Below, piece after piece: positions 44,614 to 52,765 of a DNA stretch of 64,000 nt. The position numbers and the translations under genes are program-made. Source of the stretch: Actinocatenispora thailandica (GTDB lineage Bacteria > Actinomycetota > Actinomycetes > Mycobacteriales > Micromonosporaceae). How positions within the stretch are numbered: the first letter of the stretch is position 1; every line of letters starts with the position of its first letter. The DNA is taken from positions 3,966,198 through 4,030,197 of the forward strand of contig NZ_AP023355.1 in NCBI RefSeq assembly GCF_016865425.1, written 5' to 3'. Under the pieces are notes generated by a model. The model had not been told where the DNA came from. It saw only the letters and a program-made list of their open reading frames with translations, and made no database searches.

Positions 44614-44654
44614 GACGGACGGCCCGGCGCGGGGGATGCGCCGGGCCGTCCGTC
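44614..44654 (+). terminator. Methyltransferase terminator with G5 loop
   Basis: A perfect 17-bp stem (44614-44630 with 44638-44654) closes on the loop GGGGGAT. It starts 31 bp after the stop codon, and its right arm runs directly into the hairpin array. Confidence 0.85.
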
Positions 44655-44850
44655 TCGTACCCGGCTGGTGCACCAGGGGGTTGCACACCAGCCACCGGGT
44701 CCGCCGGTGCGCCAGGGGGTTCCGCACCGACCGCTCGTACCAGGCTGGTGCGCCAGGGGGTCCCGCACCAACCGCTCGTACCAGGCTGGTGCGCCAGGGG
44801 GTCCCGCACCAACCGCACCGCGCTCGTGCACCAGGGGGTCGTGCACCAGC
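44654..44850. repeat. Array of five ~41-bp hairpin repeats with G5 loops
   Basis: CCAGGGGGT recurs at 44673, 44712, 44753, 44794 and 44831. Each copy is flanked by short complementary arms: unit 1 GGCTGGTG/CACCAGCC, unit 2 CGGTGCG/CGCACCG, units 3-4 TGGTGCG/CGCACCA, unit 5 GTGCAC-type. The C-G versus T-A swap between units 2 and 3 keeps pairing. No spacers, so not CRISPR. Confidence 0.85.
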
Positions 44851-48877: not shown

Positions 48878-49303
48878 ATGGGCTGTTCCAACAGCAGCGC
48901 ACCGGCCTACGGGGAGATGTCCTGGTTCTGCTGCGGCGGTTCCTGGGGACCGTGCTCCTCGGCCGGCGGCGGCGCCTGCGGCAACTGCAACTCCGGGTCG
49001 CACCAGTGCGCCTGGCCGCACGCCTCGGACGCGTGCTACTCCATCACCCAGCCGTACAACTGCGGGCACAACCTCGCCCTGCGCGGCTGCGGGCACGTCT
49101 TCTACATCACCAACCGGTGCACCGGCGGGTGCGTGTCGGCCAGCGTCGCCGACTGCGGCCCGAACACCCACCTGTTCTGCGGCGAGCGGCACTGCTGCGG
49201 CTCGACCTGCGGTACCGACCGGCTCATCGATCTGACGCCGTCGGCGTTCAGCGCGATCGCCAGCCTGTCCAGCGGCCTGTTGCCGTGCCGGATCGACAGC
49301 TGA
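48878..49303 (+). CDS. Cysteine-rich protein with double-psi-barrel-like signature, no signal peptide
   Basis: 141 residues, 18 of them Cys. GAAGGGAG six nt before the ATG. The C-terminal half resembles double-psi beta-barrel/expansin-type sequences: GHVFYITNRCTGGC (with Asn in place of the usual Asp before R-C) and DLTPSAFSAIASL. The N-terminal part is Cys/Gly/Ser-rich (SWFCCGGSWGPC, ACGNC). There is no hydrophobic signal sequence, although so many cysteines suggest disulfides formed outside the cytosol. It is in an operon with a Tat substrate (11-bp gap) and a MauE-like protein. Exact function unknown; resemblance to small MADH-type Cys-rich subunits is only general. Confidence 0.8.
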   Translation: MGCSNSSAPAYGEMSWFCCGGSWGPCSSAGGGACGNCNSGSHQCAWPHASDACYSITQPYNCGHNLALRGCGHVFYITNRCTGGCVSASVADCGPNTHLFCGERHCCGSTCGTDRLIDLTPSAFSAIASLSSGLLPCRIDS

Positions 49304-49314
49304 GGAGGCATCAG

Positions 49315-49926
49315 ATGACCACCGCCATGGACCGCCGCCGGCTGCTCACCTCCGCCGTACTGGGCAGCGCCGGCATCGCCGGCGCCACCGCCCTCGGTTC
49401 GCTCGCACCGGAAACCGCGAACGCCGCCCCGGCCGCCGCGTTCACCCCGGGCGAGGTCGACCCGAACTTCGCCGAGGGCCGCGTCACCGGCATCAAGGAC
49501 CACGTCCTGCTCGTCACCGGCTCGGACAACGTGCTGCACCGCATCCAGGTCACCAGCGGGACGAGCATCTGGAAGCTGCACCCGACGACGTTCGAGGCGG
49601 TCGCCGTCGGTGACGGGCTCTACGCCCGGGGCGTCCCGCTGCCGGGCGGCGCGCTCGGCGCCGACTCGCTGTGGGTCAACATCGTCAGCATGTCGGTCGA
49701 GATCACCGCGATCGGCAACTCCTGGCTGCACCTCAACCACAACGGCAGCAAGGTGATCGGGCACGTGGTGCCCGGCCGCACTGCCGCGGTGTACCGGGAC
49801 GCGCCGACCACCGGCGACCTGTCCAAGTTGCGGATCGGCCGGCACGTGCACATCATCGGCGCCTGGCGGCCGGACACCAACGAGGTCGACCTGGCCACCA
49901 TCTACGCGGGCACGGTGGCGGCATGA
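49315..49926 (+). CDS. Tat-exported beta-barrel protein of unknown function
   Basis: 203 residues. Tat signal with twin arginines in MDRRRLLTSAVLG, a moderately hydrophobic stretch and an Ala-rich cleavage region near residue 40. The mature part is all-beta (GRVTGIKDHVLLVTGSDN, HRIQVTSGTSIWK, RIGRHVHIIGAWRPD), resembling OB-fold/DUF5666-like repeats. GGAGG precedes the ATG. It lies between the Cys-rich gene and the MauE-like gene; a role as Tat carrier for the signal-less Cys-rich partner is an inference. The stop overlaps a tiny ORF as ATGA. Confidence 0.8.
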   Translation: MTTAMDRRRLLTSAVLGSAGIAGATALGSLAPETANAAPAAAFTPGEVDPNFAEGRVTGIKDHVLLVTGSDNVLHRIQVTSGTSIWKLHPTTFEAVAVGDGLYARGVPLPGGALGADSLWVNIVSMSVEITAIGNSWLHLNHNGSKVIGHVVPGRTAAVYRDAPTTGDLSKLRIGRHVHIIGAWRPDTNEVDLATIYAGTVAA

Positions 49927-50014
49927 ACGGCGCCCGCCGGACGGCCGGGGAGCCGACATGAGTGCCGCCGACGCACGCGGTGCCCGGAGCCGCACCGCCG
50001 GGGAGGCGAGATGA
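49923..50014 (+). other. Ladder of two tiny ORFs linking the Tat and MauE-like genes
   Basis: ATG 49923 (in the ATGA of the upstream stop) opens 12 codons to TGA 49959-49961. ATG 49958 opens 18 codons to TGA 50012-50014, which overlaps the MauE-like ATG at 50011. The second and third ATGs have GGGGAG upstream, apparently a duplicated start region (GCCGGGGAG...ATGAGT twice). Confidence 0.6.
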
Positions 50015-50859
50015 GTACCGCGCTGCCGGCCGCCGTCGCGGGGGCGGCACCGGTCCTCGTCGCCGGCGTGTTCGTGGTGTCCGGCCGGGTCAAGGTGGCC
50101 AGCCGTACCGCCCGCTCGCGGGCCGCCGGGTCGGCGCTCGGCACGCTGGTCGGCAAGGACCGGGCCGCCACCGTGTACGGCGGGGTCGGCGTCGCCGAGG
50201 TCGCGATCGCCGCGCTGCTGCTCGCCGGTGGTCTCGCCACCTGGTGGCCAGCGCTGGCCGTACCGGCGCGGGTCGCGGCCGGCGCCGCGGCGGTGGCGGC
50301 GGCCGGCTTCCTGGGCTACCTCGGGTACGCCCGGATCGCCGCTCCCGGCTCCTCCTGCGGTTGCGTCAGTGCCCGGTCGGCCCCGGTGACCTGGCGCAGC
50401 TTCGTCCGCGCCGGGGCGCTGCTGGCGGTGGCGCTGGTGGCGGTGGCCGCGCCGGTCTCGTGGCCGACCGCACTCGCGAGCCATCCGTACCCGGTGGTCG
50501 CCGCGCTGGCGCTCGGCGGCCTGGCGATGCTGCTGCTGTCGCCGGAGGCGGAGCACGCGTGGCTGCTGCCGCTGCGCCGGCTGCACGCCAGGGTGCGGCC
50601 GCATCCGCTGGCCGGCCTGGCGTACGACCTGCCGCTCGCGTCGACGCTGCGCCAGCTGGAGGCGAGTGAGAGCTACCGCGGTGTCGGTGCCCGGCTGCGC
50701 AGTGACGTGCTGGAGCACTGGGACGAAGGCGAGTGGCGGATCGTCTGCTACCACGCGGAGGGCGACCAGACGGCGGTGTTCGCGGTGCCGCGGTTGCGGT
50801 ACGACCCGGATGCCGTACGGCTCGCCCTCGTCGACGACCCGCTGGTGGCCACCGCCTGA
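50011..50859 (+). CDS. MauE/DoxX-like redox-associated membrane protein
   Basis: 282 residues. Four or more helices in ~5-185 with the MauE-like segment GSSCGCVSARSAPVTWRSFVR, in which paired cysteines (CGC) sit before the S-P-V-W motif typical of this family. MauE is needed for disulfide-rich methylamine dehydrogenase small-subunit assembly. Here the partner would be the 18-Cys protein three genes earlier. Residues ~190-282 are an extra soluble domain with no assigned family. GGGGAGG lies five nt before the ATG. Confidence 0.82.
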   Translation: MSTALPAAVAGAAPVLVAGVFVVSGRVKVASRTARSRAAGSALGTLVGKDRAATVYGGVGVAEVAIAALLLAGGLATWWPALAVPARVAAGAAAVAAAGFLGYLGYARIAAPGSSCGCVSARSAPVTWRSFVRAGALLAVALVAVAAPVSWPTALASHPYPVVAALALGGLAMLLLSPEAEHAWLLPLRRLHARVRPHPLAGLAYDLPLASTLRQLEASESYRGVGARLRSDVLEHWDEGEWRIVCYHAEGDQTAVFAVPRLRYDPDAVRLALVDDPLVATA

Positions 50860-52084: not shown

Positions 52085-52765
52085 TCAGCGCTTGCGCGGC
52101 GACCGGGCCGTCGTCTTCTTCGCCCCGGTCGTCTTGCGGGCCGCGGTCTTACGAGTGGCGGCACCCTTCTTGGCCACCGCGCGCTTGGCCGTCGTCTTCT
52201 TCGCCGCCGCGGTCTTCCGCGCCGGCGCCGCCTTGCGGGCCGTCGTCTTCTTCGCCGCCGCCTTGGCGGTGGTCTTCCTCGCGGTCGTCTTCGCCGGCGC
52301 CTTCTTGGCGGTGGTCTTCTTCGCCGCGGTGGTCTTCCTCGCCGCCGCGGTGCTCTTCCTCGCGGCCGTGGTCTTCTTCGCCGCCGTGGTCCTCTTCGCC
52401 GCCGTCGCCTTCTTGGCGGTGGTCTTCTTCGCCGCGGTCTTGCTCGCGGCGGCCTTCTTCGCGGTCGTCTTCTTCGCCGCGGCGACCTTCTTCTTCCCGG
52501 TCACCACGTCCTTGAAGGCCTGCCCCGGGCGGAATGCCGGCACCGAGGTCTTGCGCACCTTCACCGTCTCGCCGGTGCGCGGATTGCGCGCGGTGCGCGC
52601 CGCCCTGGCCCGCTTCTCGAAGACACCGAAACCGGCCAGCGAAATTTTCCCGCCCTTGGACACCGTGCGCTGGATCTCGTCGAGCACCGCATCCAGCGCC
52701 GTGGCGGCCTGTTTCCGGTCGCCGATGCGCGCGGTCAGCGCCTCGATCAGCTCTGCCTTGTTCAC
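52085..52765 (-). CDS. hupB: HU nucleoid protein with histone-H1-like tail
   Basis: Nucleoid-associated DNA-binding protein of 226 residues. Residues 1-90 are a canonical HU fold ([13 protein letters not shown]..., [37 protein letters not shown]). Residues ~91-226 are a lysine/alanine/threonine tail of AAKKTTAKK-type repeats, as in actinobacterial HupB/HupS, which gives extra DNA compaction. GTG start with GGGAG six nt upstream. Confidence 0.95.

What the first reader, a model, noticed from the sequence alone, without database searches (positions are those of the whole stretch)
48878..50859. Cys-rich / Tat-exported / MauE-like cassette: a possible Tat hitchhiker redox system
Seen: a 141-aa protein with 18 Cys and no signal peptide, then a Tat substrate 11 bp downstream, then a MauE-like membrane protein with CGC. 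Known: MauE assists disulfide-rich small-subunit assembly of methylamine dehydrogenase; Tat can carry signal-less partners. Inference: the Cys-rich double-psi-like protein is folded, carried out by the Tat protein and oxidised with the MauE-like protein. No dehydrogenase large subunit is present, so it is not a mau operon.
Basis: partly seen in the sequence, partly recalled or inferred. Interest (0 to 1): 0.72.

Follow-up and report, generated by a model that had tools for sequence, protein, structure and literature searches.

The report
Tat-linked cysteine-rich protein export cassette
Three neighbouring genes that travel together in many soil actinobacteria encode a cysteine-rich protein with no export signal, a partner carrying a signal for exporting folded proteins, and a membrane redox protein, which suggests a small dedicated route for folding and exporting a disulfide-rich protein.

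Summary
CYS (141 aa, 18 Cys, no signal peptide), TAT (Tat signal, 11 bp downstream) and MAU (MauE family, CGC) form a three-gene cassette. Of 142 relatives found in genome contigs the best 80 were read: TAT follows CYS in 80 of 80 and MAU in 78 of 80; the other two contigs end first. No fourth gene is conserved at a constant place. 14 Cys are invariant in 95 distinct sequences, and an extra Cys pair is gained together in 13 of 13. A close relative's CYS models as a double-psi beta-barrel, like loosenins and expansins; its TAT as two OB folds. Best reading: Tat exports CYS with TAT as escort, and MAU helps disulfide formation. Neither export nor CYS-TAT association is shown (fusion model pTM 0.47).

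The parts
48878..49303 (+). CYS: signal-less Cys-rich DPBB protein, 141 aa, 18 Cys (14 family-invariant)
49061..49291 (+). part of CYS matched by Pfam DPBB_1 (residues 62-138), holding invariant D92 and D118
   Evidence: E=0.077 for this protein, below the cut-off
49304..49308 (+). GGAGG directly after the CYS stop: presumed ribosome-binding site of TAT (stop-to-start 11 bp; suggests coupled translation)
   Evidence: sequence; 90 of 95 distinct loci have an SD-like motif in the 16 nt that begin with the CYS stop codon
49315..49926 (+). TAT: Tat-signal protein of two OB folds (weak DUF5666), 203 aa, no Cys in this copy
49315..49425 (+). Tat signal peptide (RRRLL ... ANA; the cleavage site is my reading of the sequence)
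   Evidence: RR near the N-terminus in 111 of 111 loci
50011..50859 (+). MAU: MauE-family 5-TM membrane protein with extra C-terminal domain, 282 aa
50356..50364 (+). CGC motif (residues 116-118), invariant in 37 aligned sequences, in the loop after TM3; predicted cytoplasmic
50626..50835 (+). C-terminal alpha+beta domain of MAU (about residues 206-275), predicted cytoplasmic; no Pfam match; weak cystatin-like fold resemblance

Best explanation
A dedicated export cassette for one disulfide-rich protein. CYS and TAT are made side by side from one message (shown: gene order and spacing; inferred: coupled translation). CYS has no signal of its own (shown by sequence reading) and folds as a double-psi beta-barrel stapled by up to seven conserved disulfides (fold modelled on a relative; pairing inferred from invariance and co-gain of Cys). 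MAU, whose CGC loop and C-terminal domain are predicted to face the cytoplasm, helps form or proofread these disulfides at the membrane before export (inferred). TAT, two OB folds behind a Tat signal, binds folded CYS and takes it through the Tat pore as a hitchhiker (inferred). Outside, CYS acts on or binds a wall polysaccharide or another extracellular target, as its fold relatives do (inferred, weakest step).
For: TAT in 80 of 80 and MAU in 78 of 80 scan loci (best 80 of 142 relatives) across 21 genera named in record titles. In 300 family genomes CYS is found in 65 and all 65 also match TAT (in G258 in two frames); G119 keeps only a broken TAT piece and a MAU and has no CYS; two more have only weak TAT hits at E 8e-5 and 3e-4. 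No signal peptide seen in any CYS, an RR signal in all 111 TATs. 14 core Cys invariant in 95 of 95; C3 comes with C85 (7) or C87 (6) in 13 of 13, and neither occurs in the other 82. DPBB fold of the L035 protein: PA4485 4avr Z 12.6, rmsd 1.7 over 92 residues; loosenin 9ce9 Z 10.6; kiwellins, expansins, Streptomyces papain inhibitor and a cyanophage baseplate protein Z 9.2-10.1. MAU scores as MauE and aligns with Paracoccus MauE around CGC. Topology. Tat often needs disulfides formed first: PMC6708511 passages.
Against: No confident CYS-TAT packing in the read-through fusion model (pTM 0.47; only 18 paired rows of 40). No export, redox or binding data. The Pfam DPBB_1 match is below the curated cut-off for the window protein (13.7 versus 28.8 bits). 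59 of 95 sequences have C137 and 55 of 95 have 15 Cys, so not all Cys need be paired. The positive-inside rule is a prediction; the C-terminal domain as a whole is acidic (mean K+R 7.7, D+E 11.9); and the cytoplasm is reducing.
Confidence: 0.42

Rival explanations
1. One reading: CYS is carried out by TAT reduced or partly folded, and MAU oxidises it on the outer face.
For: In this actinobacterial family another MauE class, often beside a DsbA-like protein, has its CGC loop predicted outside in 20 of 25 four-TM cases, with 4 undecided and 1 inside; some Tat cargoes are exported without their disulfides (PMC6708511 passages).
Against: Cassette MAUs come out CGC-inside in 70 of 70 parsed proteins, 67 of them five-TM; mean K+R 4.7, 3.4 and 5.3 in loop 1, loop 3 and the juxtamembrane part, against 0.2 and 0.3 in loops 2 and 4.
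Confidence: 0.2
2. CYS is a cytosolic metal-binding or redox-sensing protein that works with the cytoplasmic side of MAU; TAT is only a co-regulated exported partner.
For: No signal peptide on CYS in the 111 loci read; MAU's CGC and C-terminal domain are predicted cytoplasmic; no modelled CYS-TAT interface.
Against: Most of the nearest folds are extracellular proteins (location recalled), and a weak sequence relative in L113 is an RlpA-like DPBB at the end of a long ORF that looks exported by eye; the all-or-none link to TAT with a gap of 8-17 bp in 106 of 111 loci; paired gain of extra Cys, though paired Cys could also bind metal.
Confidence: 0.2
3. CYS is a modified-peptide (RiPP-like) precursor with MAU as modifying enzyme, as decRiPPter proposed for Cys-rich small precursors beside mauE in Streptomyces.
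For: decRiPPter reports three candidate families with mauE homologues and precursors of at least 8 Cys (PMC7794033, section 7).
Against: That screen took products under 100 aa and its strict filter asked for a transporter, a peptidase and a regulator; CYS is 133-150 aa with the starts assigned here, a conserved globular fold with 51 nearly invariant residues, and no such neighbour is conserved.
Confidence: 0.06
4. The three proteins share an operon and a wall function, but CYS leaves by another route (unknown secretion or lysis) and needs no TAT.
For: Sharing an operon does not prove binding; the fusion model shows no confident interface.
Against: It would not explain the strict CYS-TAT pairing.
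Confidence: 0.12

Closest known systems
Tat hitchhiker pairs (hydrogenase and PaoABC type; MelC1-MelC2 of Streptomyces recalled)
   Same: A signal-less protein encoded beside a Tat-signal partner, as in the hitchhiker mechanism described in PMC10924467 (passages) and PMC4273604 (listing only).
   Different: No cofactor enzyme is evident; the cargo is a small Cys-rich DPBB and the carrier a tandem-OB protein; a MauE-like protein is a constant third member.
mau operon (methylamine dehydrogenase) of Paracoccus denitrificans, L125
   Same: MauE with CGC in a five-TM layout; a Cys-rich small subunit, MauA, with a twin-arginine leader; same predicted side for CGC.
   Different: MauA carries its own leader and is unrelated to CYS; no MauD, MauB or MauG-like gene is a conserved neighbour here; MAU has an extra C-terminal domain.
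DPBB proteins: RlpA-like PA4485, loosenin PcaLOOL12, expansins, kiwellin, Streptomyces papain inhibitor
   Same: Fold (Z 9.2-12.6); the two Asp of the RlpA-like DPBB in L113 line up with D92 and D118 by eye.
   Different: CYS has 14 invariant Cys, a Cys-rich N-terminal part and no signal peptide.
decRiPPter mauE families of Streptomyces (PMC7794033)
   Same: MauE homologue beside a Cys-rich small protein.
   Different: Precursors under 100 aa in peptide-cluster settings; I saw no Tat protein mentioned in section 7; the supplement could not be read.

Membership tests
MauE family (PF07291) | Score over the curated Pfam cut-off | tested here: met
   39.7 bits against 27
MauE family (PF07291) | CxC motif after TM3 and homology to Paracoccus MauE | tested here: met
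   hhalign E 4.2e-6, probability 86.9, 34% over 74 columns; CGC invariant in 37 of 37
mau operon | MauD, MADH large and small subunits nearby | tested here: not met
   No fourth gene conserved at a constant place within up to 6 kb in 80 loci (ORFs of 80 aa or more); CYS unrelated to MauA (hhalign probability 0.3); no PF02975 or PF06433 match in the genome, but no control genome matched either, so the latter is weak
Tat hitchhiker pair | Partner without signal peptide beside a Tat-signal partner | tested here: met
   111 of 111 loci, by hydropathy and motif with assigned starts
Tat hitchhiker pair | Stable complex of the two | tested here: inconclusive
   Fusion model pTM 0.47, both domains well modelled for most of their length
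Tat hitchhiker pair | Tat-dependent export of the signal-less partner | not testable with these tools
   Needs localisation in wild type and tat mutant
DPBB_1 (PF03330) | Double-psi beta-barrel fold | tested here: met
   L035 relative: 4avr Z 12.6, rmsd 1.7, 92 residues
DPBB_1 (PF03330) | Score over the Pfam cut-off | tested here: inconclusive
   Window protein 13.7 bits under 28.8; 29 of 40 rows match at E<=0.1, the number of rows that hold CYS, best 5.4e-8; per-row bits not shown
DUF5666 (PF18914) | Score over the Pfam cut-off | tested here: inconclusive
   21 of 40 rows match at E<=0.1 (29 rows hold TAT), best 3.2e-6; the first member 16.2 under 27; the window's TAT gave no DUF5666 match at E<=1
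decRiPPter mauE candidate RiPP | Precursor under 100 aa with transporter, peptidase and regulator genes | tested here: not met
   CYS 133-150 aa; no such conserved neighbour

The most novel reading that the evidence does not exclude
MauE-type proteins of the five-TM class are natural disulfide-forming or proofreading enzymes of the cytoplasmic membrane face, devoted to proteins that must be oxidised and folded before Tat export. This cassette is the minimal form (cargo, Tat carrier, oxidase), and the canonical mau system is another: Tat-leader MauA, with MauE and MauD both predicted to face the cytoplasm.
Probability: 0.28. Interest if true: 0.86.

Novelty: new variant of a known kind. Interest (0 to 1): 0.64.

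Why it matters
Signal-less Tat passengers are hard to find by bioinformatics (said of tail-anchored ones in PMC10924467, passage); here is a family-wide candidate with a strict partner. It joins three things: a Cys-rich DPBB cargo, a tandem-OB Tat carrier and a MauE-like membrane redox protein. It makes a plain question testable: how bacteria oxidise a disulfide-rich protein that has to be folded before Tat export. It also offers a reading of MauE and MauD, whose roles are said to be speculative or unclear (PMC7794033).

Tried and rejected
Mis-called start hiding a signal peptide in CYS: judged unlikely (SD-like motif in 87 of 95, in-frame stop within 60 codons upstream in 69 of 95; translated upstream sequences differ between near-identical relatives because of a frame-shifting indel, although the upstream DNA aligns at 54 of 60). 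The other 26 of 95 have no such stop, so there it rests on the motif and the lack of a hydrophobic stretch. Homology of CYS with MauA: none. Named fold for the MAU C-terminal domain: only weak cystatin- or kinase-lobe-like rows, Z at most 5.3. A sigma-70 promoter or terminator: none found. A fourth conserved gene: none; the next clusters after the cassette were antisense ORFs over it (80 and 39 loci) and one in 19 loci on both strands at scattered places. Wider presence: a profile search in 396 phylum genomes gave the own genome and one weak RlpA-like DPBB; 296 class genomes gave the own genome, one clear hit (G798, neighbours not examined) and one weak hit. Those searches scored at most 10-14 candidates per genome, so misses are possible. 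The 62 weaker of the 142 scan relatives were not kept and not read; MAU was checked in 30 of the 65 family genomes with CYS.

Thioredoxin-partner orientation as a control for MauE topology gave a mixed result. With the farthest start codon within 35 residues, 19 of 19 partners of the DsbA-type MauEs came out outside and the partners in L117 and L151 inside, but Paracoccus MauD came out outside because of a spurious upstream start. With the nearest start codon, 9 of 9 partners found for five-TM MauEs came out inside, but of 24 partners of the four-TM class 14 came out inside, 9 outside and 1 undecided, since the start chosen often lay at or within the helix. I therefore lean on MauE loops, not on partners. 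The 50 comparison MauEs were the own genome's, Paracoccus MauE, the loci the search returned and 20 that I chose from its non-cassette hits over 45 bits; weaker hits were not examined; 8 of 50 gave no call. The Fisher values ignore relatedness and leave out two weak TAT hits (G014, G151). The TAT finder asked for twin basic residues, so RR in 111 of 111 means that none failed it. Paper searches for this cassette showed no description of it in their listings; only open-licence papers were searched and no supplements could be read.
Full report
What is there. CYS (48878-49303) is 141 aa with 18 Cys; TAT (49315-49926) is 203 aa with an RRRLL Tat signal; MAU (50011-50859) is 282 aa and scores as MauE, PF07291, over the Pfam cut-off.

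Conservation. CYS has one copy in its own genome and is found in 65 of 300 genomes of the family, 17 of 44 genera. A scan of genome contigs gave 142 relatives; the best 80 were kept and read. Their record titles name 21 genera, among them Nonomuraea, Streptosporangium, Catellatospora, Micromonospora, Kribbella, Actinoallomurus, Allokutzneria and Streptomyces. Of the first 31 loci (30 of the 65 family genomes and one Nonomuraea record), 31 have all three genes. Of the 80, 80 have TAT and 78 have MAU; the two others stop 89 and 366 bp after TAT at a contig end. The 31 and the 80 overlap in part; there are 95 distinct CYS sequences among the 111.

Reciprocal test. TAT was searched in the same 300 genomes of the family. 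68 match: the 65 that have CYS, G119 with a fragment, and two at E 8e-5 and 3e-4 (G014, G151). In G258 TAT reads in two frames. G119 keeps a truncated, frame-shifted TAT and a MAU but no CYS (best E 0.04), so the locus seems to decay once CYS is lost. Outside the family the cassette is rare: 296 class genomes gave one clear new hit, 396 phylum genomes none (few candidates scored per genome). No other gene is conserved at a constant place within up to 6 kb; the only other large clusters are antisense ORFs over the cassette. The unit is thus three genes, placed in differing contexts.

CYS. None of the 111 loci shows a signal peptide with the starts that I assigned; no predictor was run. The highest 12-residue hydropathy in the first 40 residues is 0.4-1.4 in 95 CYS against 1.5-2.1 in 111 TAT; 2 of 95 CYS have RR in the first 35 residues. 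In most loci the start sits a few residues before the conserved G-E-x-S-W-F-C-C motif, with a loosely defined SD-like motif in 87 of 95. 14 Cys are invariant in 95 of 95. Of the variable ones, C3 is present in 13, and each of those has either C85 (7) or C87 (6); none of the other 82 has C85 or C87. C85 goes with the Actinocatenispora/Actinoallomurus-type N-terminus and C87 with the Streptomyces-type one (read), so two partner positions arose in two groups, which argues for a real C3 pair. C137 is present in 59, and 55 of 95 have 15 Cys, so one free Cys is likely there. Pfam DPBB_1 matches 29 of the 40 rows of A2 at E<=0.1, the number that hold CYS, best 5.4e-8; the window's own match is weak (E 0.077).

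Fold of CYS. The model is of the L035 protein (Actinoallomurus soli; 76% identical in CYS and 64% in TAT to the window). Its CYS domain matches PA4485 (Z 12.6, rmsd 1.7, 92 residues), loosenin (10.6), kiwellins, expansins, the Streptomyces papain inhibitor and a cyanophage baseplate protein (9.2-10.1). A weak hit in another genome (L113) is an RlpA-like DPBB at the end of a long ORF; its DRGP...RIIDLS lines up by eye with DCGP...NRIIDLT, so that the invariant D92 and D118 of CYS match the two Asp there. That such Asp matter in expansins and RlpA is recalled.

TAT. RR near the N-terminus in 111 of 111 (the finder asked for twin basic residues and none failed), no Cys in 76 and one in 35. It models as two OB folds (residues about 196-270 and 268-347 of the fusion; CusF- and PriB-like rows, Z about 8-9). 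OB folds are common, so no function follows. An SD-like motif lies in the 16 nt that begin with the CYS stop in 90 of 95, and TAT begins 8-17 bp after the stop in 106 of 111 with the starts assigned, which fits coupled translation.

Does CYS bind TAT? Some loci have the two genes in frame, so the read-through product (stop read as Ser) could be modelled as one chain, with 18 paired rows among 40. Ten-residue blocks have pLDDT 83-94 in CYS except residues 1-10 (49) and 21-30 (52), and 87-97 in TAT from residue 201; but pTM is 0.47, so there is no confident packing. This does not support a complex; the alignment is shallow, so it does not exclude one.

MAU. The model of the window's protein is good (pLDDT 90.8, pTM 0.75): five TM helices and a C-terminal alpha+beta domain without a Pfam match. 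C116-G117-C118 is invariant in 37 of 37. Over these 37 sequences mean K+R is 4.7 in loop 1, 3.4 in the CGC loop, 5.3 in the stretch after TM5, and 0.2 and 0.3 in loops 2 and 4; the C-terminal domain as a whole is acidic (7.7 against 11.9 D+E). By the positive-inside rule the CGC loop and the C-terminal domain are in the cytoplasm. With one uniform procedure, 70 of 70 parsed cassette MAUs come out CGC-inside (67 with five TM, 3 with four; 76 distinct complete proteins, 6 not parsed).

Controls. I took the mau operon of Paracoccus denitrificans and other MauE proteins of the family. Of 50 loci, 42 gave a call: 17 five-TM proteins, all CGC-inside, including Paracoccus MauE; 25 four-TM proteins, 20 outside, 4 undecided, 1 inside. 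The four-TM class often lies beside a DsbA-like protein with a charged N-terminus before its anchor. MauA of Paracoccus has a twin-arginine leader (RRSVIGKLG), and MauD begins with its anchor followed by R-Q...H-E-R, which the same rule puts with its thioredoxin domain inside. Partner orientation over the whole set depended on the start codon chosen (see Tried and rejected), so it is weak support only.

Mechanism. A review states that some Tat cargoes were exported only when disulfides had formed first, and that QcrA mutants defective in the disulfide are quickly degraded, while other cargoes go without (PMC6708511, passages). A MauE-type protein acting on the cytoplasmic face would meet this need. 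The chain is then: CYS made, folded and oxidised at the membrane with MAU, escorted by TAT through Tat, released outside. Shown: genes, order, absence of a visible signal on CYS, folds by model, charge pattern. Inferred: disulfides, complex, export, side and direction of the redox step. Tat machinery is present in the genome (TatC).

Known or new. decRiPPter noted mauE homologues beside precursors with at least 8 Cys in Streptomyces (PMC7794033, section 7 read); the idea that MauE forms disulfides is cited there. A study of tail-anchored Tat proteins says that signal-less ones exported with a Tat partner would be difficult to find bioinformatically (PMC10924467, abstract and passages). I saw no description of this cassette in the listings. 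MADH subunit families gave no match in the genome, without a working control. I rate it a new variant of a known kind (Tat hitchhiker with dedicated maturation), with a bolder reading of pre-export oxidation at about 0.28.

Noticed in passing
window 44654-44848: Tandem array of a unit of about 41 bp (4-4.7 copies, 82% match).
   Followed up: no
L176 (G119:C1:6101500-6104500): Decayed cassette: CYS absent, 5' half of TAT gone and the rest frame-shifted, MAU still about 86% identical to the L051 copy over 275 residues.
   Followed up: yes
L116-L118, L125-L151, L155-L174: MauE proteins fall into two layouts: four TM with RGL.IDCGCF, often beside a DsbA-like protein, CGC mostly predicted outside; and five TM, CGC predicted inside, including Paracoccus MauE.
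   Followed up: partly
L125:4971-6182: By charge, Paracoccus MauD's thioredoxin domain would face the cytoplasm, and MauA has a twin-arginine leader.
   Followed up: partly
G258:C26:3818-4407: TAT matches in two overlapping pieces in different frames beside an intact CYS match: a frameshift or a sequencing error.
   Followed up: no
window 52085-52765 (- strand): HU-like protein with a long Ala/Lys-rich tail (name recalled from sequence).
   Followed up: no
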